From a bacterium (GTDB taxonomy: Bacteria; Verrucomicrobiota; Verrucomicrobiia; Limisphaerales; UBA11358): a DNA stretch of 64,000 bases. Location of the stretch: positions 1 to 64,000 of the forward strand of contig JAKAFL010000013.1 in assembly GCA_021817945.1 (NCBI GenBank), given 5' to 3'. Below the pieces are notes generated by a model that was not told where the DNA came from, made no database searches, and saw only the letters and a list, made by a program, of their open reading frames with translations. The translations under genes were made by a program, and so were the position numbers. Of this stretch, positions 44,787-61,306 are shown piece by piece; position 1 is the first letter of the stretch; the number at the start of each line of letters is the position of its first letter.

Positions 44787-45929
44787 ATGCGAGCAGGCAA
44801 ATATGTAAAACAAGTGGAAGGATACCGGGCTTTCATCCCAGCCCCGCTTCCACCGCTGCCGCCCATTGCGATGGATGCGGAACTGACCCGGCTGCTGTCC
44901 GAAGCGGATCATGCCCTTGGACGGCTGGACGGCGTCACCTCCATTTTGCCCAATTCTGATTTATTCGTGTCCATGTATGTCCGCCATGAGGCGGTGCTAA
45001 GTTCGCAAATCGAGGGCACGCAAAGCACGCTTGAAGACGTGCTGCAATTTGAGATGGACGCCAAAGGCCAGGAGCATCCCAAAGACGTTGAGCAAGTCTT
45101 CAATTACGTCCGCTCCATGAATCACGGCTTGAAGCGTCTGAATTCCTTGCCGCTTTCCTTGCGCCTCATTCGGGAAATCCATGAAAAACTTTTGCAGGGC
45201 GTTCGCGGCGCGAACCGCACGCCGGGAGAATTCCGCCGCAGCCAGAACTGGATCGGCCCGGCGAACTGCACCTTGGCGACGGCCACCTTTGTCCCGCCTC
45301 CAGTCCATGACATTCAGGAGGCGCTCGCCAACCTGGAAAAATTCCTGCAGGATGAAAAGACCTACCCGACATTGATTCAATGCGGCCTGGCTCATGCGCA
45401 ATTTGAAACCATTCACCCATTTCTGGATGGCAATGGCCGTGTTGGGCGCTTGCTCATTACTTTCCTGCTCTGCCAGCGTGGCATTCTGAAATTTCCCCTG
45501 CTGTATCTGAGCCATTACCTCAAATTCCACCGGGCGGAGTATTACGACCGGCTTATGGCAATCCGTAACGACGGCAATTGGGAGAGCTGGTTAAAATTCT
45601 TCCTCAAGGGCGTGGGAGAGGTCAGTCGTTCGGCCACTGAAACAGCCCGGAAAATTTTGGAACTGCGGCAGAAGCATCAAGCTCTGATCCGGGACAAAGC
45701 TTCCAACCAGACAAATGCCGGGCTGCTGTTGGATTACCTGTTTGAACAGCCGATGGTGAACGTGCGACTTGTCGAAGACCACGTCAAATGCGCCTTTGTG
45801 ACTGCGGACAAACTGCTCAAGCAGTTTGAAGAACTCGGCATCGTGAAGGAAGTCACGGGCGGGCGACGCAATCGGCGTTACGAATATTCGCCCTACCTGG
45901 CGTTGTTTGAACCTGCGGAAATCAACTAG
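44787..45929 (+). CDS. Fic-family protein with inhibitory helix and wHTH end
   Basis: 380-residue Fic protein. Fic domains transfer AMP (or other nucleotide groups) to protein hydroxyls. The catalytic motif HPFLDGNGRVGR lies at about 210-221 with all key residues. An upstream auto-inhibitory motif 'SSQIEGT' (72-78) makes this a class II, self-inhibited enzyme. The start 'MRAGKYVKQVEGYRAFIPAPLPP' is the typical Fic_N region, and residues about 300-375 look like a winged helix ('LLLDYLFEQPMVNVRLVEDH'), common in the widespread chromosomal type. A palindrome just upstream suggests control by a repressor, perhaps its own wHTH. Confidence 0.9.
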   Translation: MRAGKYVKQVEGYRAFIPAPLPPLPPIAMDAELTRLLSEADHALGRLDGVTSILPNSDLFVSMYVRHEAVLSSQIEGTQSTLEDVLQFEMDAKGQEHPKDVEQVFNYVRSMNHGLKRLNSLPLSLRLIREIHEKLLQGVRGANRTPGEFRRSQNWIGPANCTLATATFVPPPVHDIQEALANLEKFLQDEKTYPTLIQCGLAHAQFETIHPFLDGNGRVGRLLITFLLCQRGILKFPLLYLSHYLKFHRAEYYDRLMAIRNDGNWESWLKFFLKGVGEVSRSATETARKILELRQKHQALIRDKASNQTNAGLLLDYLFEQPMVNVRLVEDHVKCAFVTADKLLKQFEELGIVKEVTGGRRNRRYEYSPYLALFEPAEIN

Positions 45930-46427: not shown

Positions 46428-49400
46428 ATGCCGGTGATGTTCCGCATGAGTTTCCAGTCCTATACAAGCATGGAAGTCATTGACAACATCAATCAACTGC
46501 TGGGCGACAACCTGAAGCAGACGATTACGCCGGGATCAAAGCTCAAAATCGCGGCGTCGTGCTTTTCCATCTACGCCTTCGAGTCACTCAAGGCAGAACT
46601 GGAAAAGATTGATTCGCTTCAGTTCATTTTCACTTCACCCACGTTTGTTCCCGGCGAAGTGACGGACAAGTTGAAAAAAGAGCATCGCGAATTCCACATT
46701 CCCAAACTGGAGCGCGAGCGCAGCCTTTACGGCAGTGAATTTGAAGTCCGTCTGCGCAATGAACTCACCCAGCGTGCCATTGCCAAAGAGTGCGCGGAAT
46801 GGATGCGGCAGAAGGCGATCTTCCGGTCAAATCGCGGGAACGCCCCGATGCAACAGTTTGCCGCCGTCACGGCCGGGGATAAAGAATCGGTGTATCTGCC
46901 GCTGCACGGATTTACCGCCGTTGATCTGGGTTACGAAAAAGGCAACGCTGTCTCCAATTTCGTCAACCGTTTCGATGAGCGATCCTTCACCTCGAACTAT
47001 CTTTCGCTTTTTGATCAAATCTGGAGCAACCCGGAAAAGCTCGAAGATGTGACGGCCCGGCTTTGCGAGCACATCGCCTCCGTGTATCAGGAAAATTCGC
47101 CCGAGCGCATTTACTTCCTGATGCTCTACAATATTTTCAGCGAATTCTTGGAAGACATCACGGCGGACGTTTTGCCTAACGACCGCACGGGTTATCAAGA
47201 CAGCCTGGTGTGGAAGAAGTTGTTCAACTTCCAGCGCGATGCCGCCACCGGCATCATCAACAAGCTGGAAACCTACAACGGTTGTATCCTCGCGGACAGC
47301 GTGGGGCTGGGGAAAACCTTCACCGCCCTGGCGGTCATCAAGTATTACGAGTTGCGCAACCGGTCTGTTCTGGTTCTTTGCCCCAAAAAACTCACGGACA
47401 ACTGGCTCACCTACCGGGGCAATCTGATCACCAACATTTTTGCCAAGGACCGCTTCGGCTACGATGTCCTTTGCCATACCGACTTGCTCCGTGAAAGCGG
47501 CCTGTCTGTCAGCGGTATGCCGCTCAACCGTGTCAACTGGGGCAATTACGATCTGGTGGTCATTGACGAGTCGCACAACTTTCGCAACAACGATCTCTAC
47601 CGCGAACGCGAGACCCGCTATCAGCGTCTCTTGAACCAGGTCGTCCGGCAGGGCGTGAAAACCAAAGTGCTGATGCTCTCCGCCACCCCCGTGAACAACC
47701 GCTTCTCGGACCTGAAAAATCAGCTCGCGTTGGCTTACGAAGGCGACCCGGAAAATCTCAGTTCCAAGTTGAAATCCGACAAGCACATTGATGAAATCTT
47801 CCGCCGTGCCCAGGCCGCGTTCAATGCGTGGTCCGCACTGCCGCCAGCAGAACGCACCGCCACCGCGATTCTAAATGCCCTCGACTTTGATTTTTTTGAG
47901 GTGCTGGACAGTGTGACCATCGCCCGCTCGCGGCGTCACATTCAGACCTATTATGACACGAAAGACATTGGCACCTTTCCCGAACGGCTCAAGCCGTTGT
48001 CCTTCCACTGTCAGCTCACGCACCGCAAGGACGTCATCGGCTTCAACGAGATTTTTGACCGCCTGAGCAAACTCTCGCTCGCGGTGTATGCCCCCTTGAG
48101 CTACGTGCAACCGAGCCGGCTGTCCGGCTACGAGGAACTTTACGACCCTGATTCGGATCAAGGGCATGAGAATCTCAAACAGTCGGGACGCGAAAAGGGC
48201 ATTCAGGCGTTGATGACGGTCAACCTGCTCAAGCGTCTGGAAAGCTCCGTCCATTCCTTCCGGCTCACCCTGAAAAGTCTGGCCGGCAATCACCAAAGCA
48301 CGCTGGACAAAATTGCCGCCTACAAGAAAACCGGGCGGGACGCCACCTTTGCCGATGTCTCGGCCGCCTTCGCGGATGTGGAACCCGATGATGACGACGA
48401 ACCGCCGAATCCCGAAGATTCCCAGATTGGAAGCAAGGTGCAGATCAAACTTTCCGACATGGACATCCCGAGCTGGGAGCAGGAGTTGTCGGCGGATCTG
48501 GTCATCATCAATGATTTGATTTCCGAAATGGAGAAGGTCACGCCATCAGATGACGCCAAGCTCCAGCACCTCAAAACCACCATTCTCAGCAAGCTGGCTT
48601 CGCCCATCAATCAGGGCAACCGCAAAGTCCTTATTTTTACCGCGTTTGCCGACACGGCCGATTACCTGTTCGATCACCTTTCTCCTTTCTTTCTCGAATC
48701 TCAAAGCATTCATACCGCCGAGGTCACTGGCGGTAATCGCCGTCAACGCAGCACGCTTAAAAAAAACTACGATTTCCAATCGCTACTCACGCTCTTTTCG
48801 CCACTGTCCAAACAGAAAGCCGCCATTCTGCCCAAGGAGCCGGACGAGATTGATCTGCTCATCGGCACGGACTGTATTTCCGAGGGGCAAAACCTTCAGG
48901 ATTGCGATTATCTGGTCAACTACGACATCCACTGGAATCCCGTCCGCATCATCCAGCGCTTTGGCCGCATTGACCGCATCGGCTCGCAAAACGCGTCCAT
49001 CCAGTTGGTCAACTACTGGCCCGACATCACGCTGGACGATTACATCAATTTGAAGGAGCGCGTCGAAAACCGGATGATCATTGCCGATGTCACCGCCACC
49101 GGCGATGACAACCCGCTGGATTCCCGCGCCAATGATGTCGCCTATCGTCGCGAACAACTCCGACGTTTGCAGGATGAAGTCGTAGAACTGGAAGACCTCA
49201 AGACTGGCATCTCCATCACCGATCTGGGTTTGAACGATTTTCGCATGGATCTCGTGAACTATGTGAAAACGCACGCCGATCTCGCCAGCCTGCCGAATGG
49301 CATGCACGCCGTGGTGGCCGCCGCCCCGGAACGCGGCCTCGTGCCCGGTGCCATCTTCGCCCTGCGCAACCGTAACGACAGCGTCAATATCAACCGCCAG

Positions 49401-49859
49401 AACCGCCTGCATCCGTATTACCTCGTCTATATCGCTCAGGACGGCACCATCGTTGCCAATCACACCGAGGCCAAACGGCTCCTGGATCTGGCCCGTTCCG
49501 CGTGCAAGGACCGGAGCGTGCCAATCCCGGAAGTTTATCAGGCGTTCAACAAGGCCACCAAGGATGGACGCCGGATGGACGCCTACTCCGAACTGCTCGG
49601 CACGGCCATTCGGTCCATGATCGAGCTGAAGGCGGAGAAGGACATTGACAGCCTGTTCTCCGGCGGCAAAACGACCGCTTTGGTCAATTCCATCAGCGGC
49701 CTGGACGATTTTGAGCTGATTGCGTTCATTGTCTTTTATGATCCTTCCAGCGCCGATGGCGGCACAACCCGGCATGTGATCGAGACCATGCTCAAGAAGC
49801 GGGGGGCGAAAGTGACCAGCCAGCTCATCTACGAAATCATGGAACGGGAGGGAATTTGA
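46428..49859 (+). CDS. SNF2-type helicase with PLD-like amino-terminus
   Basis: 1143-residue superfamily 2 ATPase of the SNF2/RapA kind. Residues about 15-110 ('GSKLKIAASCFSIYAFESLK') form a PLD-like half without an HKD site. The motor has Walker A 'ADSVGLGKT' (about 289-297), motif II 'VVIDESHNFRN', motif III 'MLSATPVNN', a long charged insertion (about 620-720) and motif VI 'QRFGRIDRIGS'. The last 200 residues are unassigned. Such helicases are common next to methylases and nucleases in phage-defence loci and probably move along or remodel DNA. The conserved part may start at the in-frame ATG 46470. First gene of a six-gene array. Confidence 0.85.
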   Translation: MPVMFRMSFQSYTSMEVIDNINQLLGDNLKQTITPGSKLKIAASCFSIYAFESLKAELEKIDSLQFIFTSPTFVPGEVTDKLKKEHREFHIPKLERERSLYGSEFEVRLRNELTQRAIAKECAEWMRQKAIFRSNRGNAPMQQFAAVTAGDKESVYLPLHGFTAVDLGYEKGNAVSNFVNRFDERSFTSNYLSLFDQIWSNPEKLEDVTARLCEHIASVYQENSPERIYFLMLYNIFSEFLEDITADVLPNDRTGYQDSLVWKKLFNFQRDAATGIINKLETYNGCILADSVGLGKTFTALAVIKYYELRNRSVLVLCPKKLTDNWLTYRGNLITNIFAKDRFGYDVLCHTDLLRESGLSVSGMPLNRVNWGNYDLVVIDESHNFRNNDLYRERETRYQRLLNQVVRQGVKTKVLMLSATPVNNRFSDLKNQLALAYEGDPENLSSKLKSDKHIDEIFRRAQAAFNAWSALPPAERTATAILNALDFDFFEVLDSVTIARSRRHIQTYYDTKDIGTFPERLKPLSFHCQLTHRKDVIGFNEIFDRLSKLSLAVYAPLSYVQPSRLSGYEELYDPDSDQGHENLKQSGREKGIQALMTVNLLKRLESSVHSFRLTLKSLAGNHQSTLDKIAAYKKTGRDATFADVSAAFADVEPDDDDEPPNPEDSQIGSKVQIKLSDMDIPSWEQELSADLVIINDLISEMEKVTPSDDAKLQHLKTTILSKLASPINQGNRKVLIFTAFADTADYLFDHLSPFFLESQSIHTAEVTGGNRRQRSTLKKNYDFQSLLTLFSPLSKQKAAILPKEPDEIDLLIGTDCISEGQNLQDCDYLVNYDIHWNPVRIIQRFGRIDRIGSQNASIQLVNYWPDITLDDYINLKERVENRMIIADVTATGDDNPLDSRANDVAYRREQLRRLQDEVVELEDLKTGISITDLGLNDFRMDLVNYVKTHADLASLPNGMHAVVAAAPERGLVPGAIFALRNRNDSVNINRQNRLHPYYLVYIAQDGTIVANHTEAKRLLDLARSACKDRSVPIPEVYQAFNKATKDGRRMDAYSELLGTAIRSMIELKAEKDIDSLFSGGKTTALVNSISGLDDFELIAFIVFYDPSSADGGTTRHVIETMLKKRGAKVTSQLIYEIMEREGI

Positions 49860-49863
49860 CGCC

Positions 49864-50274
49864 ATGTTCCTGCTCGACATTAATGTCCTGATCGCCCTGG
49901 CCGATCCTGATCACGAGCACCACGGGAAGGCCGAATCCTTTTTCCTCGCGAACCACCGGCTCGGTTGGGCGACCTGTCCGCTGACGGAAAATGGCTTTGT
50001 CCGCATCCTCGGCAGTGCCAGCTATCCCAAAGGTCCGGACAGTTCGGATGCCGCCTGCGCCATTTTGAAACACCTATGCGCCCAGCCGGGTCATCGTTTC
50101 TGGACCGACGACCTTTCGCTCCGGGGTTCGCCAAATCTGCCCGTCTCCAAACATTTGACCGATCATTATCTGCTCAGTCTGGCTATGCATCGCCAGGGCA
50201 AACTCGTCACGTTCGACCGCCATATTCAGGCTGGGAGGATTCCCGGCGGAGCCGCCGCATATCTGGTGATTTGA
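49864..50274 (+). CDS. PIN-domain nuclease (VapC-like), no antitoxin
   Basis: 136-residue PIN domain. The acidic Mg-binding residues are D5 ('MFLLDINVLIAL'), E42 ('LTENGFVRIL'), D100 ('HLTDHYLLSLA') and D118 ('LVTFDRHI'). PIN toxins cleave RNA and are normally encoded behind a small antitoxin, which is missing here: the gene lies 4 bp after the helicase and 5 bp before DUF4391. A ribosome-binding site GGAGGG lies at the end of the helicase gene. So it is either an orphan toxin or an RNase component of the defence array. Confidence 0.85.
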   Translation: MFLLDINVLIALADPDHEHHGKAESFFLANHRLGWATCPLTENGFVRILGSASYPKGPDSSDAACAILKHLCAQPGHRFWTDDLSLRGSPNLPVSKHLTDHYLLSLAMHRQGKLVTFDRHIQAGRIPGGAAAYLVI

Positions 50275-50279
50275 CTGCC

Positions 50280-50936
50280 ATGTTTGCCTATCCACGACAA
50301 ACTGAATTCAACCGCCCGGTCCCCAAAACCAAAATTTACGCGCACGCCCGCGCCTCCAAACGTCTCAAGGAACTTTTTGTGGCCCAGGTTGGAGAAATCG
50401 TATGGAAATACAAACTGTCGCCCGAGACGGTCAACCTGCCGGCGCGGAATGGCATCTCTGAAATCCAGGTGTTTGAACTGATGCTCAAGACGCCGGAACT
50501 GGACGACGCCGTGCTCGCGACGCTGGACAAAGCCATCCCGTTCCCGCTGCTTTTCCAGCTCGTTCATGACGGGCAAATCCGCTTTGCCGCCGCTTACAAA
50601 CGCCCCAGCGAAGCGGACGCTTCCAAATGGGTCGTGGAAGCCCGGTTTCAAACCGGCCCGCAGCCGGTGGGCGCGGAACGTCCGCCGTTGCCGGTGGCCC
50701 TGGATCTCGCCGGCCTTTACGAACAGCTCGTTCGCCGTCACATTGCGTTGCCGCCGCGCGCGGGAGAAGGCATCATGGAACACGTGACTCGTTTTAATGC
50801 GATTACGGCAAAACAACACACCAGACGGCAACTGGAAACCCGTCTGGCCCAAGAAAAGCAATTTAACCGAAAAGTAGAAATGAACGCCGCACTACGTTCG
50901 CTAATGAATGAAATCAGGAGCCTGGCACACATTTAA
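50280..50936 (+). CDS. DUF4391 protein
   Basis: 218-residue protein recognised as DUF4391 (PF14335), a family repeatedly found beside SNF2-like helicases and type III restriction genes. Typical parts are 'KTKIYAHARASKRLKELFVAQVGEIVWKYKLSP' near the start, 'ISEIQVFELMLK' and the ending 'KEKQFNRKVEMNAALRSL'-like helix. No catalytic motif is visible, so a structural or adaptor role is possible. ATG 50280 is 5 bp after the PIN stop; the frame is open further upstream, but inside the PIN gene. Confidence 0.75.
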   Translation: MFAYPRQTEFNRPVPKTKIYAHARASKRLKELFVAQVGEIVWKYKLSPETVNLPARNGISEIQVFELMLKTPELDDAVLATLDKAIPFPLLFQLVHDGQIRFAAAYKRPSEADASKWVVEARFQTGPQPVGAERPPLPVALDLAGLYEQLVRRHIALPPRAGEGIMEHVTRFNAITAKQHTRRQLETRLAQEKQFNRKVEMNAALRSLMNEIRSLAHI

Positions 50937-50945
50937 AATATCTCG

Positions 50946-52007
50946 ATGAAATCCCTAATCCAATTGCAACTCCCGTCCGGCCGGAAAACCGAGTCTGTTG
51001 ATCAAGCAATTTTGACATTATCTTCGAGCGTAAAATGGGAGCAAATTTCAGCGGCAGTAGCGTATTCGTCCTTAGCAGGCGTCGCTAGACTTCACGAAGT
51101 TGTTTACTCGGTTCAGCCGGAAGTTTCGTTCAGGTGGCTGCTGGGGCTTGATGACTATGTAACTCAACCCGGAGCAATTGATTTCTGCTGTTCAATCAAA
51201 AATTCAGTTGTCAAAGTTTATTCGTCCAAGACGCCAAGAACACGTTTCCATCCGAAAGTGCTTCTGTTTGATTCCGTAACTAGCTATCCGTCTTCTTCAA
51301 TGATTGTTGGTTCCGCTAATTTAACATTCGCTGCGCTCAATCGTAACTGCGAAGCTATTGCGGTTCTCGCCGCACAAAATCACGACGAGCAAAACCTAAT
51401 GCGCTCACGGTTCAATTCATTGTGGAAACTCGGCACAGAACCAACTTCCTCTATTCTGGCCGACTATCGGAAGAAATTTGAAAAGCATCGTAAATCCCGT
51501 GCTTTCCTTTTGGATACAGAAAGTGAGAGTTCAGCAAATAAGGGCCAAATTCTCCATTCAGACGCAGCCATCATCAATCCCGGTTCGGCAACTGTATGCT
51601 GGATTGAGGTGGGAAAAAACACGGCAATGGGAAAGGAGCTAGAAGTTAAAGGTGAACAAGTGCGATTTTTTGGACTTGAGCCAACCGGAGAAGCTGCTGC
51701 TTTCCGTGATTTTCGCGTTTCAAGTGGAGACACGGTTCCACTTCGCTTGAAATATCAGGGTAATGCGATGTGGCGATTGCAACTCCACTCAAACGTTCCA
51801 GAGGTTGCCACTGGACTTCGGCCAATTGTCAATGGACGACTTGGACGAAGTCCATACGTTGCAGTCTTCAAACGGATTACCAAAGAAAACCTTTATTCTC
51901 TATCGTTTCCAAGATGCGACTCAGAAGAATTTGCAAAAATCCGAAAACAGTCGGAAATCTCTGGAACAATAGGAAGCACTTCGTCGCGAGAATACGGCTG
52001 GTATTAA
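50946..52007 (+). CDS. PLD-type nuclease
   Basis: 353-residue protein with one phospholipase D/HKD nuclease motif: H102 and K104 in 'RFHPKVLLFDS', then 'SSMIVGSANLTFAALNRNCEA' (GSxNLT at 122-127). Single-HKD enzymes such as BfiI and NgoFVII-type endonucleases act as dimers and need no metal. The carboxy-terminal half has no family I recognise. Base composition is much lower in G+C (21 of 60 in a sample line at 51181) than in the helicase and Res genes, and the neighbouring part of mod shares this. It probably supplies a DNA-cutting activity beside Res. Confidence 0.8.
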   Translation: MKSLIQLQLPSGRKTESVDQAILTLSSSVKWEQISAAVAYSSLAGVARLHEVVYSVQPEVSFRWLLGLDDYVTQPGAIDFCCSIKNSVVKVYSSKTPRTRFHPKVLLFDSVTSYPSSSMIVGSANLTFAALNRNCEAIAVLAAQNHDEQNLMRSRFNSLWKLGTEPTSSILADYRKKFEKHRKSRAFLLDTESESSANKGQILHSDAAIINPGSATVCWIEVGKNTAMGKELEVKGEQVRFFGLEPTGEAAAFRDFRVSSGDTVPLRLKYQGNAMWRLQLHSNVPEVATGLRPIVNGRLGRSPYVAVFKRITKENLYSLSFPRCDSEEFAKIRKQSEISGTIGSTSSREYGWY

Positions 52008-52019
52008 ATAATCAATCAA

Positions 52020-53888
52020 ATGAACAAACTCAAACTTCATTCACTAGATTGCACTAAAGAGCGAGTAATGCAGATTGCCACATTATTTCCACATTGTATC
52101 ACGGAAGCTAAAGACGATAATGGGACGCCTTTTCAGGCTGTAGATTTTGATCTGTTGCGACAAGAGCTGTCATCCTTTGTTGTTGATGGCCCAACTGAGC
52201 GATATGGACTGAACTGGCCTGGTAAACGCGAAGCGTTAGTGACCGCAAATATGCCAGTGGCAAAAACACTGCGCCCAGCCGTTTCGGAAAGTGTTGAATT
52301 TAATGACACACAGAACTTGCTTATTGAGGGTGACAATCTTGATGGCCTGAAACTCCTACAAGAAACATTTCTCAACAGAATTAAAATCATCTGCATCGAT
52401 CCCCCATACAATACAGGTCAGGATTTTCTTTACGAAGACGACTTTGCTGAAAACCTTGAGACTTACTTGGAAAAAAGCAATCAGAGGGACGAATTGGGAA
52501 GCCGTTTGATAACCAACACAGAGTCAAACGGTCGCTTTCACTCTGACTGGCTTTCGATGATGTATCCACGGCTAAAACTTGCTCGAAACCTTCTTCGGGA
52601 AGATGGTGTGATCTTCATTACGATTTCTGACGTAGAAGTCGGAAATTTACGAAAGCTGTGCGATGAAGTTTTCGGCGAAGCAAACTTTGTAGCCAACATA
52701 ATTTGGCAGAAAAAATATACTCGTGCAAACGATGCAAAATGGTTTTCCGATAACCATGATCACGTCCTTTGTTTCGCTAGGGACAAAAGTTGTCTTCGTC
52801 TGAACAGTCTTCCGCGTAGTGAAGAACAGCTTTCTGCGTATTCAAACCCTGACAATCATCCTAAGGGGCGCTGGAAGGCCACACCACTTCACGCGAAAAG
52901 TGGCACCAACACAAAATCCTACACGTTTCTCAACGGAACTACTTGGGCGCCGCCTGCCGGCACTTTTCGTCGCTTTAATGATGATTCAATGCGGGAAATG
53001 GATAAAGGAAATGAAATTTGGTTCGGCGCAGATGGGAAGCAGACACCGAGCAGGAAAAGCTTTCTCAACGAAATCAAAGCCGGTGTAGTGCCAGTCACAA
53101 TTTGGCCTTACGATGAGGTTGGACACAATCACGAAGCTAACAACGAACTCAAGGAACTAGGGTTGAATGGAGTCTTTGACAACCCTAAACCGTCACGACT
53201 ATTTAAGCGGGCTATTTTTCTTGCTAGTTCGTCGCAGAAAGATGACATCGTTTTGGATTTCTTCGCCGGATCGGCAACGACTGCAAGTGCGGTGATGAAA
53301 CTAAACGCCGAAGATGGCGGAAACAGGCGGTTTATTCTGATGCAATTAGCCGAGCCATGCAACAAGGCATCCGAGGCATTTAAAGCTGGTTTTACATCCA
53401 TTTGTGACGTTAGCAAAGAGCGAATTCGCCGAGCTGGCACTAAGATCAAAGCCGAAAATGCCACGACGGCTCCTAACCTCGACATTGGCTTCCGCGTCCT
53501 GAAGATTGACACGTCGAACATGGCGGACGTGTATTACGCACCGGACGTGGTGAAGCAGGCCGACCTGGTGGCGCACACGGACAACCTCAAGCCCGACCGG
53601 ACGCCGGAGGATTTGCTCTTTCAAGTGCTGGTGGATTGGGGCGTGGACCTGTCCCTCCCCATCCAGCCGGAAACGATTGCCGGCAAGAAGGTGTTCTTCG
53701 TGGATGGCAACGCGCTGGCCGCCTGTTTCGATCCCAAAATCAGCGAAGACCTGGTGAAGGCGCTGGCCCAACGCAAACCGCTCCGCGCCGTCTTCCGCGA
53801 CAGCAGCTACGCCAGCGACAGCACCAAGATCAACGTGGAGCAAATTTTCAAGCTCCTCAGCCCGGAAACCGAAGTGAAGTCGCTGTAA
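52020..53888 (+). CDS. mod: Type III restriction-modification methyltransferase (Mod)
   Basis: 622-residue N6-adenine DNA methyltransferase of the beta class, which carries the recognition function of type III systems. Catalytic 'DPPYNTG' at 127-130 precedes the AdoMet motif 'DFFAGSATT' (413-421), the target-recognition domain lying between (about 230-370). The amino-terminus 'MNKLKLHSLDCTKERVMQIA' and end 'QIFKLLSPETEVKSL' are typical Mod. Composition changes inside the gene: up to about 53450 it is AT-rich (23 of 60 G+C at 52021), after that GC-rich like Res, a mosaic boundary near residue 477. Res follows 3 bp downstream. Confidence 0.93.
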   Translation: MNKLKLHSLDCTKERVMQIATLFPHCITEAKDDNGTPFQAVDFDLLRQELSSFVVDGPTERYGLNWPGKREALVTANMPVAKTLRPAVSESVEFNDTQNLLIEGDNLDGLKLLQETFLNRIKIICIDPPYNTGQDFLYEDDFAENLETYLEKSNQRDELGSRLITNTESNGRFHSDWLSMMYPRLKLARNLLREDGVIFITISDVEVGNLRKLCDEVFGEANFVANIIWQKKYTRANDAKWFSDNHDHVLCFARDKSCLRLNSLPRSEEQLSAYSNPDNHPKGRWKATPLHAKSGTNTKSYTFLNGTTWAPPAGTFRRFNDDSMREMDKGNEIWFGADGKQTPSRKSFLNEIKAGVVPVTIWPYDEVGHNHEANNELKELGLNGVFDNPKPSRLFKRAIFLASSSQKDDIVLDFFAGSATTASAVMKLNAEDGGNRRFILMQLAEPCNKASEAFKAGFTSICDVSKERIRRAGTKIKAENATTAPNLDIGFRVLKIDTSNMADVYYAPDVVKQADLVAHTDNLKPDRTPEDLLFQVLVDWGVDLSLPIQPETIAGKKVFFVDGNALAACFDPKISEDLVKALAQRKPLRAVFRDSSYASDSTKINVEQIFKLLSPETEVKSL

Positions 53889-53891
53889 GTC

Positions 53892-56800
53892 ATGAAGCTG
53901 AAATTCAAACAGCAGCGCTACCAGACGGATGCCGTCAAGGCGGTGGTGGATTGCTTCGCCGGCCAGCCCAAAAGCAAAGGGTTCAAATATGCAGTGGATC
54001 CCGGTCGCACGGCGGCTGGAGCGGCGGCCGCTTTGCCCGGCACCGAAGCGGAAGGTTTCGCCAACGAAAAAATCGCCCTCTCCCACGCCCAGGTGCTGGG
54101 AAATTTGCAAGCCGTCCAGCGGCGGCAAAATCTCACCGTCTCGCCCGAACTGAAAAAGACTTCCGTCTGCGACGTGAATCTGGATGTGGAGATGGAAACC
54201 GGCACGGGCAAGACGTATTGCTACATCAAGACGATGTTTGAGCTGCACCGGGAATACGGCTGGGGTAAGTTCATCGTGGTGGTGCCCAGCATCGCCATCC
54301 GGGAAGGCGTCATGCAGTCCTTCGAGCTGATGACGGAACATTTCCTGGAACAATACGGCAAGCGCGTCCGCTTTTTCATTTATAACTCCAAGCAATTGCA
54401 CAATCTGGAGAGCTTTTCCTCCGATGCCGGCATCAACGTGATGATCATCAATGTGCAGGCTTTCAATGCGCGGGGCGAGGATGCCCGGCGCATTTATGCG
54501 GAGCTGGATGATTTTCAATCGCGCCGGCCCATTGATGTGATTTCCAAGAACCGCCCCATCCTGATCCTGGATGAACCGCAGAAAATGGAAGGCAAGGCGA
54601 CGACGGAGAAGCTGGCGGAGTTCCATCCGCTGATGATTCTGCGCTATTCCGCCACACACAAGACCGAGCACAACAAGGTGTATCGGCTGGATGCCATTGA
54701 CGCCTACAACCAGAAGCTGGTGAAAAAGATCGCCGTGCGCGGCATCACGGTCAAGGGGCTGTCCGGCACGAACGCCTATCTTTATCTGGAATCCATCAAG
54801 ATTTCGACCACCAAGCCGCCGGAAGCGCGGGCCGAGCTGGAGATTCAGCAAAAGAGTGGCATCAAGCGCGTGTTGCGCATGTTGCGCAAGAACGACAATC
54901 TTCACGCTTTGTCCGACGGCTTGGAGCAATATCGCGGCTTCGTGGTGTCCGACATCAATGCGATTGAGAACACCATCAGCTTCACCAATGGCGTCGTGCT
55001 TGGTGCCGGTGAGGCCACCGGTGACGTGAGCGAATCCGCCTTGCGCCGTATCCAGATTCGCGAGGCCATCAAGGCGCATTTTGAAAAGGAAAAACTGCTC
55101 TTTGCCCAGGGTATCAAGGTGCTGTCCCTGTTCTTCATTGATGAAGTCGCAAAATATCGCAGCTATAACGAGACCGGCGAACAGGCTGGTGAATATGCCC
55201 AGGTGTTCGAGGAGGAATACAACAGCCAGCTTAATGAAGTGCTGACCCTGGAAGACACGCCCTACAACCGCTATCTCAAAGGCATTCAAACCAGCCTGAC
55301 GCACGACGGCTATTTCTCCATAGACAAAAAAACGAACCGGCTGGTGAATCCCGAAGTGGAGGCGCGCGGCGAATCCGCCGGCGAGGCCAAAGATGTGGAT
55401 GCCTACGATCTCATATTGCGGGACAAGGCGCGCCTGCTGAATTTCGATGAACCGGTGCGATTCATCTTCTCCCATTCTGCGTTGCGGGAGGGCTGGGATA
55501 ACCCGAATGTCTTTGTCATTTGCACATTGAAACACAGCGACAACACGGTGTCGCGGCGTCAGGAAGTCGGGCGCGGTATGCGCCTCTGCGTAAACCAAAA
55601 CGGGGATCGGATGGATGATCCAGCCATTGTCCATCAGGTGAACGTGCTGACTGTGGTGGCCAACGAGAGCTACAAGAATTTTGTTGCCGGCTTGCAAAAG
55701 GACATCAGCAACTCGCTGTCAGCCCGGCCCAAGCAGGCCAACCAGGAGTATTTCACGGACAAGGTGCTCAAGACACCGACGGGCGATGTGAAGGTGACAC
55801 CGCAGTTGGCCAAGCTGATCGAGCGTTATCTGGTGAAAAACGATTATTCCGACACCGACGAGCGTATCACCGAAGATTACCATCAGGCCAAAAAGGAGGG
55901 CGCACTGGCTCCGTTGCCGGCAGAACTGGAGCCTTTCAAGGAGCAGGTCTTTCAACTCATTGACAGCGTGTTCAGCACGTCGCAGTTGCCCGAAATTGAC
56001 GATGACCGCCAGGGCAAGGTGAACCCACTCAATGCCAATTTTGAGAAGAAGGAATTTCAAGAGCTGTGGGGCCGCATCAACCGCAAAGCCATTTACGCTG
56101 TTGATTTTGAAACCAACGAGCTGGTTACGAAGTGCATCAAAACACTCGACAAAGAACTCAAAGTGACGCCACTGCAATACACGGTGACTGCCGGAGAACA
56201 GACCCAGGAGGCCACTTATGAGGCGATGAAAAAGGGCGACGCGTTTGTGCTGAAGGAAAACGCCACCGGCCACCTGACCAGCTCGGCGCGCTCCGCCGTG
56301 AAATATGACCTCATCGGGAAACTGGCAGAAGCCACCCAACTGACGCGGCAGACCATCGCGGGCATCTTGCGGGGCATCAATGTTGCGGTATTCAGCCAAT
56401 ACAAAACCAACCCGGAAGATTTTATTCTTAAGGCCGGCACGCTCATCAACGAGCAGAAGGCCACGGTCATTGTCGAACACCTCGCCTACGATCCGCTGGA
56501 GGACAGCTACGGCATTGACATTTTCACGCAGGAGAAAAAGGAGGACTTGAGCAAAGGCTTCAAAGCAACCCGGCACATTTACGACTACGTCTTCACCGAC
56601 TCCTCCAACGAACGGACCTTCGTCGGCGAACTGGATGCCAGCTCGGAGGTGGTCGTTTACGCAAAATTGCCGAAAGCCTTCCACATCCCGACGCCCGTGG
56701 GAAACTACAATCCCGACTGGGCCATCGCCTTTCAATCCGGCAAAGTGAAGCACATCTATTTCGTGGCCGAAACCAAAGGCTCCATGTCCTCTATGGATTT

Positions 56801-56921
56801 GCGAAAGATCGAAGAATCCAAGATCGAATGCGCCCGCAAATTTTTCGCCAGGATCACCAGCGCCCAGGTGAAATATGACGTCGTGAACAGCTATGGAAAA
56901 TTAATGGAATTGGTGAAGTAA
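53892..56921 (+). CDS. res: Type III restriction enzyme subunit (Res)
   Basis: 1009-residue SF2 helicase-nuclease that cuts DNA in complex with Mod. Walker A 'METGTGKTY' (101-109), motif II 'LILDEPQKM', motif III 'RYSATHK', motif VI '[12 protein letters not shown]', and a carboxy-terminal PD-(D/E)xK nuclease site in '[12 protein letters not shown]' and 'VAETKGS'. All catalytic parts are present and the length is normal, so the subunit should be active. Sample G+C is 36 of 60 at 55021, in contrast to the upstream part of mod. Confidence 0.94.
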
Positions 56922-57492: not shown

Positions 57493-58581
57493 TCAATACG
57501 GTGGTGCCAATCGTCTAAACCCGTGAACTAGGACTGCGCTGATGAAAACAAAATTGCGCAATACGATTGCAGGCCAAAAGCAACCGATGGAACCAGCCGG
57601 TTTTCCACAAAAATTTTGTTCGGCCAATCTTACAGCAATTTTCTGCATATACGAAACCGACCTTGGCCATTCCCATATTTTATCAACCCATTCAGTTGGA
57701 ATTCCGTTTTTCCCAACGACAGCGCCCGACAGCGCTCCAAGGATTGCACCAACAGTATCCGTATCCCCACCGCAATCCAGAGCAGCGGCGAGCGCGGTGC
57801 GGAATTCGTCTGGATGCCGCAGCCATGCGTATAGCGCCACGGGAACGACGTGCAAAGAATAACCGGTCACACCACGCTTCAAATTCAAACTGCGGACAAA
57901 ATCTGACACGTTATGATCCGCCGCCAGAGAGGATTTCATTTTGGAAATGATACCCTGCCATTCTGATTCCTCCGAAAGCGCGGCAAGAGCATCAAACACC
58001 TTTGAAGCGTCTCCATGCTGGGTAGTCATTGCCAACGCTGCGGATTCGGCTACGGCCAAGGCAGCGATGTCTGCTTGCCAACTCCGGTGGGTCAACCGCG
58101 TTGACGCCAACACGAATGCCTTCCTTTGTTCCGGCTTCGTGGCGAAATAGGCTCCGATGATGGCGCTGCGCATTGGCGGGCCGCTGCCAGCCGAGACAAC
58201 CGCACATTTTTCTGGGCGAAATCCCATCCACATTTTGATGCAGGATTTGGCAGTGGCCAAGCCAACGCCACCTGGCAACGCAGCAAACCACCAACGGAAT
58301 TTCCACGCAAGAGCACGTTGAAATTCGGTCGCACTGTCTGGGTGTTCAAGCAAAGCCTGTGCAACCATCAAAGTGTGTTCGGTATCATCGCTGACCATCC
58401 CTTTGCCGAAAATGAACCGCATTCTCCATTTACCTTTCCAGCGTTTGTGGATTTTCTCAGCCGAAAGATTTTCTGCGGGCAACCCAAGCGCATCTCCCAC
58501 AGCCGTGCCAAGCAACAGGCCGGCAAAGCGATCGTTCAAAGTTAAGTTCGGCGCAGGTGAACTGGTTGCCGGGGCATTCAT
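57493..58581 (-). CDS. ADP-ribosylglycohydrolase (DraG/ARH family)
   Basis: 362-residue enzyme that removes ADP-ribose from proteins, nucleic acids or small molecules. The two-Mg site is intact: 'GTAVGDALGLPAE' near residue 30, 'SDDTEHTLMVAQ' near 65 and 'DCGGDTDTVGAILGALSGA' near 290. ATG 58581 overlaps the Nudix stop by four bases; an extension to 58662 would run through the Nudix gene. Last gene of the eight-gene minus-strand operon. Paired with the second hydrolase of the same superfamily at 59969-61306, which suggests different substrates. Confidence 0.9.
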   Translation of the reverse strand: MNAPATSSPAPNLTLNDRFAGLLLGTAVGDALGLPAENLSAEKIHKRWKGKWRMRFIFGKGMVSDDTEHTLMVAQALLEHPDSATEFQRALAWKFRWWFAALPGGVGLATAKSCIKMWMGFRPEKCAVVSAGSGPPMRSAIIGAYFATKPEQRKAFVLASTRLTHRSWQADIAALAVAESAALAMTTQHGDASKVFDALAALSEESEWQGIISKMKSSLAADHNVSDFVRSLNLKRGVTGYSLHVVPVALYAWLRHPDEFRTALAAALDCGGDTDTVGAILGALSGAVVGKNGIPTEWVDKIWEWPRSVSYMQKIAVRLAEQNFCGKPAGSIGCFWPAIVLRNFVFISAVLVHGFRRLAPPY

Positions 58582-59108
58582 TTGTTCTGGTTGATGAAGA
58601 ACAGGCCCGCAAAAACTTTTGGGTCTATCAAAACACCAGTTCGCGCCTTGGCCTCCAACCATGGAATTATCTCCGCCAACGAAATCTCATGAACGATGAT
58701 GTCCTCATGCGCTACGCCACCGCCTTCGCCGACCCGACTCAAGCCGAGGGCACGAAATAGTGTAACGCGTTCTGAGGTGATGCCGCTACAAGCCGGACCA
58801 GTGGTTAAAGGTTCAATTTGTTTCGCGTCGTATCCGGTTTCCTCCAGCAATTCACGGCGCGCAGCTTCAGCGTGAGTCTCGTTCGTGCTGTCCGGTTCAT
58901 CTCCAATGATGCCTGCCGGCAATTCAATCGTCCGCGCATGAACAGGAATCCGATATTGTTCCACCAGCAGCATTTTATTTTCCTGGGTCACGGCGACGAT
59001 CAAAGCCGCGCCTGTGGCGTTGACCCGATCAGCGAATTCCCAATGGCCTTCTTTCACCAGAGACAGAAACTTGCCGGTATGCAGCGTGGTTTGGGTGGTT
59101 TGGTTCAT
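58578..59108 (-). CDS. Nudix hydrolase, probable ADP-ribose pyrophosphatase
   Basis: 176-residue Nudix protein. The Nudix box 'AEAARRELLEETGY' is complete, preceded by 'RTIELPAGIIGDEPDSTNE' as in ADP-ribose pyrophosphatases (NudF/ADPRase), which cut ADP-ribose to AMP and ribose 5-phosphate. This fits its neighbours: free ADP-ribose released by the two glycohydrolases would be its substrate. Start overlaps the nicotinamidase stop, and its own stop overlaps the next start. Confidence 0.9.
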   Translation of the reverse strand: MNQTTQTTLHTGKFLSLVKEGHWEFADRVNATGAALIVAVTQENKMLLVEQYRIPVHARTIELPAGIIGDEPDSTNETHAEAARRELLEETGYDAKQIEPLTTGPACSGITSERVTLFRALGLSRVGEGGGVAHEDIIVHEISLAEIIPWLEAKARTGVLIDPKVFAGLFFINQNK

Positions 59109-59732: not shown

Positions 59733-59972
59733 TTATTGAATCAATTTGCGTTGGCGAAGGAGCGCCACGACCTTGCGCGCCCACACTCGGTCGGCTTCCT
59801 TCATGTTGTCTGCCAATTCTGCATAATCCACCCATGAGCGCTGCCATTTTGAGCGGATTACCTCCGCGACATCCCCAGCGACAGATTTTGACCAGTGCAT
59901 CCACTGCTCATGCTCAATTTCGGCAAGGGCCTCAACTAAATTGTCGGTTGGGTTAAGCGGCATATTATTCAT
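59733..59972 (-). CDS. 79-aa protein of unknown function
   Basis: Small helical protein with 'AEIEHEQWMHWSKSVA' and 'DYAELADNMKEADRVWARKV'. This 'EHxxWxxW ... Y-x-EL-x-x-x-x-K-E-x-D-R-x-W' spacing resembles the short RyR-type domain seen in some bacterial conflict and nucleotide-signalling proteins, but the match is by eye only. ATG 59972 overlaps the stop of the gene upstream (ATGA). Its place in the middle of the operon argues that it works with NAD or ADP-ribose products. Confidence 0.65.
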   Translation of the reverse strand: MNNMPLNPTDNLVEALAEIEHEQWMHWSKSVAGDVAEVIRSKWQRSWVDYAELADNMKEADRVWARKVVALLRQRKLIQ

Positions 59973-61306
59973 CCAATTGCTTCTCTCGCCTCCAACCATT
60001 CATTCGGAATGCTCTTACGGCCAGCACTCAATGCAACAATTCCACCTACAATAGCTGCATTTGTGTCGCAGTCACCGCCCACGCTGATGGTTTTCCCGAT
60101 TGCTTCAACAAATTGCAGTGGATAATTAGCCGCCATCCAAATGCAGAACGGAACCGTGTCAGGAGCCGTCACCAACGAACCGTTCCCCAGCGACTTGGCC
60201 ACCTCTGGAAATGGAATTTCAACCGGCGTTTGGCTGGCCAGCAAAATGCCACGGCGCACTTTGCTTTCAGGTGTGAGCCGGAGAATTTCAGCGAAGAATT
60301 TCTGCGCAAAATCTATTTGTGGCGCGGCGCGCAGTTGCCATGCCATCGCCGCACCAACGGCAACAGCGATTGTGCCCGCCACCCCTTCGGGATGAGTATG
60401 CGTGACCAAGGCCGAATCGCGGGCAGCGTCAGCGCAGCGGGCGAGATCATCGGCGAAATAAGCGCCCAGCGGAGCGACCCGCATTGCACCACCGTTGCCC
60501 ATTGAGCCTTGACCGCCAAACGCGTTTGCTGCCGTTTCCCGCCATTTGGCCCCGGCGTTGATTTCCCGCAATTGGATACGGGTCATGCTGCCGTAACCGC
60601 GATCTGGATCACGCTCGAAACGACGGGCGAAGCGTCGTGCCAACGCATCCTGATTAAGTTCCCCATGTGATTTAAGAACGGCGACGATGGAAATTGCCAT
60701 CTCGGTGTCATCCGTATGAAACCAAGGACCGGCCGGAAGATCGTTCTCTGCCAGTCGTCGCACCGCATTCGCCGATTGATAACTAAGCATTTCACCGAGC
60801 GCGTCGCCAAGACCAAGCCCGTCAAGGGACAATTTCATTCGCTCGACCCGTTCAACGTGATTGGCCTGCAAGTTCGCTTTCCAAGTATTTTCGTGTTCCG
60901 CCAACAGTTCTCGTGCTCGTCGCAGCCATGTCGTCTGAATCCAATCGGTTCCGAGTGGCCCAACCCGATCCACCATCCAGCCGGCGAACCGAAGTTCATT
61001 ATGCATGGAATAAACGCGGTCAACGTTCGATGAATGAATCAACACAGGACACACCGGCATGAAATCGCAAAGATATTTTGTCACATCAAATCCCGTGCCT
61101 GGGTCGGTAGTGATACCTGGTTGCGGATTCAAATCATGATCGAGGCAAATCAACGCGGCGCTCGGAAAAAACTCTGCACATTCAGCAATCATTGAATGAG
61201 CGTCACGCCAAATTTTCAATTCAAACCCGCCGTTTAACTCGGTCACGGTTTTCTGAAAACCAGCAATGCGCTCGTCGTTGTCTTCCAGAATGAGGATGGT
61301 TTTCAT
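59969..61306 (-). CDS. Receiver-like domain fused to ADP-ribosylglycohydrolase
   Basis: 445-residue two-domain protein. Residues 1-125 are receiver-like ('MKTILILEDNDERIAGFQ', 'ALICLDHDLNPQPG' at 52-64, 'PVLIHSSN'), resembling the cyclic-phosphate-processing receiver type with the LDHDLN motif rather than a CheY phospho-acceptor partner. Residues about 155-445 are a DraG-type glycohydrolase with 'GLGDALGEML', 'HTDDTEMAIS', 'GNGGAMRVAPLG' and 'SVGGDCDTNAAIVGG', so the metal site is complete. The combination suggests action on ADP-ribose phosphates or cyclic phosphates (inference). Confidence 0.85.
   Translation of the reverse strand: MKTILILEDNDERIAGFQKTVTELNGGFELKIWRDAHSMIAECAEFFPSAALICLDHDLNPQPGITTDPGTGFDVTKYLCDFMPVCPVLIHSSNVDRVYSMHNELRFAGWMVDRVGPLGTDWIQTTWLRRARELLAEHENTWKANLQANHVERVERMKLSLDGLGLGDALGEMLSYQSANAVRRLAENDLPAGPWFHTDDTEMAISIVAVLKSHGELNQDALARRFARRFERDPDRGYGSMTRIQLREINAGAKWRETAANAFGGQGSMGNGGAMRVAPLGAYFADDLARCADAARDSALVTHTHPEGVAGTIAVAVGAAMAWQLRAAPQIDFAQKFFAEILRLTPESKVRRGILLASQTPVEIPFPEVAKSLGNGSLVTAPDTVPFCIWMAANYPLQFVEAIGKTISVGGDCDTNAAIVGGIVALSAGRKSIPNEWLEAREAIG

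What the first reader, a model, noticed from the sequence alone, without database searches (positions are those of the whole stretch)
50870..53450. AT-rich block: PLD gene and three quarters of mod replaced as one cassette
Hand counts give G+C of 21/60 at 51181 and 23/60 at 52021 against 36/60 at 55021. The change falls at the end of DUF4391 and inside mod near residue 477, after the AdoMet motif. The block holds the whole recognition and catalytic part of Mod plus the PLD nuclease; the conserved mod end and Res are native-like. This looks like recombinational exchange of specificity together with a linked nuclease.
Basis: partly seen in the sequence, partly recalled or inferred. Interest (0 to 1): 0.72.

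Follow-up and report, generated by a model that had tools for sequence, protein, structure and literature searches.

The report
Swappable restriction cassette in Type III locus
A 2.7-kb stretch of foreign base composition in a bacterial phage-defence operon carries both the DNA-recognition part of a methyltransferase and a separate nuclease predicted to read DNA itself; the same pair recurs in distant bacteria, as if the "cut here" and "protect here" parts must travel together.

Summary
The AT-rich block is real and sharp. GC3 is 40% in the PLD gene and 43% in Mod residues 1-477, against 83% in the Mod C-terminus and 72-73% in helicase and Res. No sampled stretch of this genome is as AT-rich. 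The breaks lie inside two genes: the last ~50 codons of DUF4391 (~50,790) and mod codon ~480 (~53,460).

The array is a widespread Type III restriction system (SNF2 helicase, DUF4391, optional genes, Mod, Res). In near-identical E. coli copies only the Mod core and target-recognition domain (TRD) is swapped, with the same right edge as here.

The PLD gene is not a generic accessory. It is an HKD nuclease with a predicted C-terminal B3 DNA-recognition fold, like BfiI and R.NgoAVII. All four other copies found sit directly before a Mod with this same TRD, on two different helicase/Res backbones. The TRD also occurs without the PLD, but the PLD was never found without the TRD. Other genes in the same slot show no such link.

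Best reading: a restriction endonuclease plus the matching recognition half of its protecting methyltransferase, exchanged together. Recognition-domain swaps in mod are known; a linked, independently DNA-reading nuclease appears new. Shared recognition sequence is inferred, not shown.

The parts
46437..49859 (+). SNF2-family helicase (backbone)
   Evidence: Pfam SNF2-rel_dom/Helicase_C; PADLOC 'HKD+Snf2' C3a139 E 8e-123; 66-72% identical to plasmid homologues; GC3 72
49864..50274 (+). VapC-like PIN-domain ribonuclease, extra gene between helicase and DUF4391
   Evidence: TIGR00028 88.6 bits, above its cut-off
50280..50936 (+). DUF4391 gene (backbone); contains the left composition break
   Evidence: PF14335 E 1.8e-52; GC3 69% codons 1-168, 44% codons 169-218
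50757..50800 (.). left break of the AT-rich cassette (support interval)
   Evidence: GC3 change-point -59 to -46 codons from PLD start
50946..52007 (+). PLD-B3 gene: predicted sequence-specific HKD restriction endonuclease
   Evidence: PLDc_2 and weak RE_NgoFVII; AF2 model matches BfiI 2c1l E 2e-12, SauUSI 7clg, R.NgoAVII 4rct
50946..51476 (+). HKD nuclease domain (aa 1-177), with invariant H102, K104, N125, E136
   Evidence: alignment of 5 PLDs; HMMER alignment to BfiI and Nuc
51585..52004 (+). B3-like DNA-recognition domain (aa 214-353)
   Evidence: AF2 of the domain alone pLDDT 83.5, pTM 0.82; top 27 VIA matches all B3 folds, best BfiI 3zi5 Z 11.7, rmsd 2.6, 122 residues
52020..53888 (+). 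Type III Mod, a compositional mosaic (aa 1-~480 AT-rich; ~481-622 GC-rich)
   Evidence: PADLOC MTase_III E 1e-228; PDB Mod 6k0w E 3.5e-78, EcoP15I Mod 4zcf; GC3
52710..53144 (+). target-recognition domain of Mod (aa 231-375), shared with all PLD-B3 loci
   Evidence: 54-77% identity within the group against 31-40% to other TRDs; plasmid TRD search
53424..53492 (.). right break of the AT-rich cassette (support interval, mod codons 469-491)
   Evidence: GC3 change-point; same right edge as E. coli mod swaps, aa ~435-470
53892..56921 (+). Type III Res (backbone)
   Evidence: PADLOC REase_III E 0; RE_endonuc and ResIII; GC3 73

Best explanation
A Type III restriction locus acquired, by recombination inside conserved coding sequence, a ~2.7-kb specificity cassette. 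It holds the tail of DUF4391, a whole PLD-B3 endonuclease gene and the first ~480 codons of mod. Shown here: the compositional mosaic, the domain architecture (by prediction), and the recurrent PLD-TRD linkage across different backbones. Inferred: the B3 domain of the nuclease and the TRD of Mod read the same DNA sequence, so Mod methylation protects the cell from the PLD nuclease as well as from Res. That would explain why this nuclease is found only beside this TRD, while the TRD also exists alone, and why the two must be exchanged together. The Mod C-terminus stays with the resident Res (inferred role: Res binding). The SNF2 helicase present in all five PLD loci may be the ATP-driven partner, as the helicase subunit is for R.CglI/R.NgoAVII (inference).
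For: Composition and break-points. In all 5 PLD loci, PLD and Mod N-part share the same AT shift from their backbone (z -16.6/-15.2, -13.3/-10.1, -14.3/-12.8, -2.8/-2.1, -5.7/-4.4). PLD immediately precedes a Mod with the same TRD in 5/5 loci (Roseomonas plasmid, Comamonadaceae, Pyrinomonadaceae, Planctomycetaceae, window), on two helicase/Res backbones. On plasmids, 140 records match this TRD but only three do so above 44% identity: E. coli without PLD, and two Roseomonas records, the only records with a PLD above 40%. Control: UvrD-like genes in the same slot are 87% identical while TRDs are 17% identical; OLD 80% against 16%; AAA 98% against 27%. The B3 domain is more conserved (47-65%) than the nuclease domain (28-38%). 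B3 fold. TRD tree groups loci across backbones, core tree by backbone. E. coli loci with 98-100% identical helicase differ in Mod aa ~70-130 to ~435-470 only.
Against: No locus with near-identical flanks and a different cassette was found for the PLD version. The E. coli swaps start inside mod and carry no nuclease. Recognition sequences of Mod and PLD-B3 are unknown. A Type III Mod methylates one strand only, so after replication one daughter is briefly unprotected; a BfiI-like enzyme cutting single sites would be risky, and BfiI itself has two methylases (PMC4267653). Only five PLD loci are known, and physical adjacency alone gives some linkage.
Confidence: 0.6

Rival explanations
1. Hitch-hiking: the PLD-B3 gene happens to lie directly upstream of mod, so it is carried along when the Mod recognition part is exchanged; its own DNA specificity has nothing to do with Mod.
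For: PLD is adjacent to mod in all five loci, so any crossover upstream of PLD moves both. PLD and Mod N-part share composition.
Against: Other genes in the same slot are not linked to the TRD: UvrD-like 87% identical with TRDs 17%, OLD 80% with 16%. PLD is never found without the TRD, while the TRD occurs without PLD in E. coli, G173 and G143. The B3 domain is better conserved than the nuclease domain.
Confidence: 0.25
2. The PLD-B3 protein is an anti-evasion or modification-dependent effector: its B3 domain reads the Mod-methylated or altered site (Type IV-like, as in SauUSI) rather than the unmethylated site.
For: The nuclease domain's best sequence match in the PDB is SauUSI (7clg, E 5e-14), described as an ATP-dependent endonuclease (PMC7913695) and, from general knowledge, specific for modified DNA.
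Against: The C-terminal domain matches sequence-reading B3 domains (BfiI, UbaLAI, EcoRII, NgoAVII). A nuclease cutting the mark made by its own Mod would be self-lethal.
Confidence: 0.07
3. Two separate events: the mod recognition part was exchanged, and the PLD gene was inserted independently from a similarly AT-rich source.
For: E. coli swaps affect only mod; the same slot receives varied genes in other loci.
Against: The AT-rich composition runs without interruption from the DUF4391 tail to mod codon ~480; the PLD-TRD pair exists as a unit elsewhere.
Confidence: 0.15
4. No exchange: the low G+C is an intrinsic property of Mod recognition domains and PLD nucleases.
For: Mod N-part is lower in GC3 than Mod C-part in all 14 loci tested.
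Against: The deficit remains after controlling for amino-acid content (z -15 to -24 in several loci), and it is small in other loci (L077 z -1.5, L125 z -2.1). It covers two unrelated genes and part of DUF4391.
Confidence: 0.04

Closest known systems
Type III restriction-modification (EcoP1I/EcoP15I-like Mod-Res)
   Same: Mod and Res families, gene order mod-res, TRD between catalytic motifs IV and I; PDB Mod 6k0w and 4zcf match
   Different: Carries a conserved SNF2 helicase and DUF4391 upstream and, here, a second predicted DNA-reading endonuclease
modA DNA-recognition-domain exchange in Neisseria/Haemophilus phasevarions (PMC3311624)
   Same: Recognition domain moved en bloc by recombination between conserved mod ends; the modA12 recognition domain has lower G+C than the rest of the gene
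   Different: There the unit is inside mod only; here it extends upstream through a whole nuclease gene into DUF4391. No repeat-based phase variation was examined or claimed here
BfiI and CglI/NgoAVII restriction endonucleases (PLD nuclease plus B3 recognition domain; PMC4267653)
   Same: HKD nuclease domain followed by B3-like domain, single HxK motif; CglI/NgoAVII also need a helicase-like ATPase
   Different: BfiI has two methylases and CglI/NgoAVII a C5 methylase; here the only neighbouring methyltransferase is a Type III Mod that also serves a Type III Res
DISARM (SNF2-like DrmD, methyltransferase, PLD protein DrmC, DrmA, DUF1998)
   Same: SNF2 helicase, methyltransferase and a PLD protein in one locus; a 26%-identical PLD sits in a DISARM locus of Methylocystis
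   Different: No DrmA or DUF1998 gene here; the methyltransferase is Type III Mod with a Res; DrmC scores are far below cut-off

Membership tests
Type III restriction-modification | beta-class N6/N4 adenine methyltransferase Mod with motif IV DPPY and motif I FxGxG order | tested here: met
   PADLOC MTase_III 1e-228, DPPYNTG and DFFAGSATT; the motif I G-to-A variant is also present in relatives L094, L077 and L101
Type III restriction-modification | Res with SF2 helicase motor and C-terminal PD-(D/E)xK nuclease directly downstream of mod | tested here: met
   REase_III E 0; ResIII and RE_endonuc domains
Type III restriction-modification | ATP-dependent cleavage after collision of complexes on two inversely oriented sites | not testable with these tools
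   biochemical
PLD-B3 restriction endonuclease (BfiI/NgoAVII kind) | N-terminal HKD nuclease domain with HxK, N and E catalytic residues | tested here: met
   H102, K104, N125, E136 invariant in 5 homologues; align to BfiI and Nuc motifs
PLD-B3 restriction endonuclease (BfiI/NgoAVII kind) | C-terminal B3-like DNA-recognition domain | tested here: met
   predicted model only: pTM 0.82; the 27 best structural matches are all B3 folds, next unrelated fold Z 4.8
PLD-B3 restriction endonuclease (BfiI/NgoAVII kind) | sequence-specific cleavage blocked by a cognate methyltransferase | not testable with these tools
   inferred from PLD-TRD linkage
mod recognition-domain swapping | different recognition domains between conserved mod ends in otherwise near-identical loci | tested here: met
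   E. coli loci: helicase 98-100%, Res 98-99% in most comparisons (one frameshifted and cut copy lower), Mod TRD unrelated; not observed directly for the window itself
DISARM | DrmA helicase and DrmB (DUF1998) core | tested here: not met
   no such gene among the array ORFs; helicase matches DrmD far below the NCBIfam cut-off (147 of 610 bits)

The most novel reading that the evidence does not exclude
A composite restriction system in which one swappable cassette carries two structurally unrelated readers of the same DNA sequence: a B3 domain on a stand-alone nuclease and a TRD on a Type III methyltransferase. One methyltransferase then protects against two endonucleases, and specificity change of the whole system happens in a single recombination step.
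Probability: 0.55. Interest if true: 0.75.

Novelty: new variant of a known kind. Interest (0 to 1): 0.6.

Why it matters
It offers a concrete answer to how a restriction system with two nucleases can change specificity without killing its host: the cutter and the matching half of the protector move as one block. It gives a natural, testable pairing of two unrelated DNA-reading folds that should recognise the same sequence. It also shows that the region before mod in a widespread plasmid, phage-plasmid and chromosomal Type III array is an accessory slot, and that only some slot genes are tied to specificity.

Tried and rejected
Sought the donor or an empty version in relatives: the two same-order genomes with 75-76% identical Res (G115, G313) have no mod next to Res or end at a contig edge, so they could not serve as recipients. 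No PLD relative in phage records, viral contigs, 195 relatives (E <= 1e-20) or 337 phylum genomes by profile. Flanking direct repeats that would suggest a site-specific or transposon mechanism: only weak, short, chance-like repeats. DISARM membership rejected (no DrmA/DUF1998). Weaker PLDs on plasmids turned out to belong to DISARM (L149), a methylase-PLD-helicase operon resembling CglI (L151) and a transposon context (L150). The idea that all slot genes track specificity was rejected: UvrD-like, OLD and AAA/DUF4276 genes do not. A literature search for DUF4391 found a single paper, not read and not evidently related; papers outside the open library were not searched.
Full report
What was checked. 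The composition plot confirms it: G+C drops to 0.42-0.48 from about 50.75 to 53.5 kb between flanks at 0.55-0.59. The block is lower than any of 1,309 equal-length windows from about 322 kb of the same genome plus the rest of the window. The change is in third codon positions: PLD 40% GC3; Mod aa 1-477 about 43%; Mod aa 478-622 81-84%; Res 73%; helicase 72%. When each gene is re-drawn with the codon usage of helicase plus Res, PLD is at z -16.6 and the Mod N-part at z -15.2, while the Mod C-part is slightly above expectation. Amino-acid content therefore does not explain it.

Edges. A change-point search puts the right edge at mod codon 480 (469-491), far beyond shuffles. It puts the left edge about 49 codons inside the 3' end of DUF4391 (GC3 69% then 44%; log-likelihood 5.5 units better than the gene boundary). 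Both edges are thus inside coding sequence of backbone genes, as expected from homologous recombination between related arrays. No notable repeats flank the block. The backbone itself is G+C-richer than the average host gene (GC3 64%), so the array as a whole probably also came from elsewhere.

The backbone. The order SNF2 helicase - DUF4391 - mod - res recurs on many plasmids of Pseudomonadota and on E. coli phage-plasmids, with helicase 66-72%, DUF4391 43-51% and Res 57-67% identity to the window in the closest ones. The position between DUF4391 and mod is an accessory slot: empty (E. coli, Methylotuvimicrobium, Acinetobacter), UvrD-like (Raoultella, Aeromonas media), OLD plus DUF2130 (Enterobacter), OLD (Aeromonas veronii). 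A second slot between mod and res holds AAA plus DUF4276, or a Schlafen-AlbA protein.

Natural exchanges. Among E. coli copies with 98-100% identical helicase, the sequence is near-identical except inside mod, from about aa 70-130 to about aa 435-470, where it falls to unrelated levels. The right edge coincides with the window's. The left edge there is inside mod and no slot gene is involved. This is the known kind of mod recognition-domain exchange; en-bloc transfer and lower G+C of a modA recognition domain were described for Neisseria and Haemophilus (PMC3311624).

The PLD gene. Its closest relatives are few: a Roseomonas plasmid (41%) and MAGs of Comamonadaceae, Pyrinomonadaceae and Planctomycetaceae (41-44%). 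In each of these four loci the PLD gene lies directly upstream of a Mod whose TRD is 56-73% identical to the window's, against 31-40% for other TRDs. Three of the four have a quite different SNF2 helicase and Res; the planctomycete has a distant version of the window's backbone. In tree terms the Mod catalytic core groups loci by backbone, while the TRD groups them across backbones, although several TRD branches are long. Compared with relatives of its own backbone (Sphingopyxis, Paracoccus, Aeromonas), the Roseomonas Mod is 59-60% identical in the core and 54-75% in the C-part but only 14-18% in the TRD.

One-way association. In 72,556 plasmid records, 140 match this TRD. Only three exceed 44% identity: one E. 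coli phage-plasmid (78%, no PLD) and two Roseomonas records (59%), the only records with a PLD above 40%. By record this is 2 of 3 against 0 of 137 (my arithmetic: Fisher p about 3e-4; counting the two Roseomonas records as one, 0.014). In the window's order, three further genomes carry the TRD at 51-62% with no PLD detected; one of these is cut by a contig edge. So the PLD has not been seen without this TRD, while the TRD exists without the PLD. That is the asymmetry expected of a cutter and its protector. Genes in the same slot that are not TRD-linked form the control: UvrD-like proteins 87% identical beside TRDs 17% identical, OLD 80% beside 16%, AAA 98% beside 27%. Composition agrees: the UvrD-like genes follow the backbone (z -1.6, +0.4) while PLD follows the Mod N-part in all five loci.

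What the PLD protein is. From this linkage I predicted a DNA-reading domain before searching for one. The AlphaFold2 model has an HKD nuclease domain and a C-terminal domain. Foldseek gives BfiI (E 2e-12), SauUSI and R.NgoAVII. The C-terminal domain predicted alone (pLDDT 83.5, pTM 0.82) has 27 best structural matches that are all B3 domains, led by the BfiI recognition domain bound to DNA (Z 11.7, rmsd 2.6 over 122 residues), with unrelated folds starting at Z 4.8. Foldseek alone gives no hit below E 0.001 for this domain, but most of its top ranks are B3 as well. Catalytic H102, K104, N125 and E136 are invariant. Unusually, the B3 domain is better conserved between loci (47-65%) than the nuclease domain (28-38%), as expected if all read one sequence.

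Mechanism proposed. The cassette contains a restriction endonuclease with its own reader and the recognition half of the methyltransferase that protects its sites. Taking only one part would either kill the cell (nuclease without matching Mod) or leave the nuclease useless; taking both changes the specificity of the whole locus in one step, while the resident Mod C-terminus and Res stay matched. Steps shown: mosaic, architecture (predicted), linkage. Steps inferred: common recognition sequence, protection, helicase partnership, single exchange event.

Open problem. A Type III Mod marks one strand, so one daughter duplex is unmarked after replication. BfiI solves its asymmetric site with two methylases, and CglI/NgoAVII need ATP and a helicase partner (PMC4267653). 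Here the SNF2 helicase, present in all five PLD loci, is a candidate for making cleavage conditional. This is testable.

Confidence. Exchange of a foreign block is very likely. That PLD and TRD are functionally matched is the best explanation (about 0.6) but rests on five loci and a predicted structure.

Noticed in passing
window 49864-50274; L075 5212-5843: A VapC-like PIN gene sits inside the window array between helicase and DUF4391, without an obvious VapB; in the Roseomonas PLD locus a VapBC pair lies directly upstream of the SNF2 helicase.
   Followed up: partly
window 44787-45929: A Fic-domain protein gene lies just upstream of the array on the same strand.
   Followed up: no
L050 8629-11649 (G115:C220): Solitary Res gene, 75% identical to the window Res, with no mod, helicase or DUF4391 upstream.
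   Followed up: partly
L079, L092-L099: The array is carried by E. coli and Citrobacter repA/IncFIB phage-plasmid-like elements (dnaE, recA-like, homing endonuclease neighbours), with several different Mod recognition domains on near-identical backbones.
   Followed up: partly
L080 17721-19512, L100 10204-11995, L154 4009-5777: An AAA ATPase + DUF4276 pair is 98% identical (AAA) between two Aeromonas loci whose Mods have unrelated TRDs; a similarly annotated pair sits before mod in another Type III locus: possibly a mobile two-gene accessory module.
   Followed up: partly
L076, L078, L080, L100-L102, L124: In many loci the Mod N-part is markedly lower in GC3 than the Mod C-part and the backbone, suggesting that AT-rich recognition modules are repeatedly imported into GC-rich hosts.
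   Followed up: partly
window 46437-47100: The helicase matches the PADLOC 'HKD+Snf2' candidate family; its N-terminus may hold a degenerate PLD-like domain.
   Followed up: no
L149 2971-8074: A methanotroph DISARM locus has a methyltransferase directly followed by a PLD protein 26% identical to the window PLD; whether it too has a B3 domain was not tested.
   Followed up: no
window 57493-58659 and 59969-61306: Two ADP-ribosylglycohydrolase-like genes downstream of the array on the opposite strand; the Pfam match was tested only for the first.
   Followed up: no
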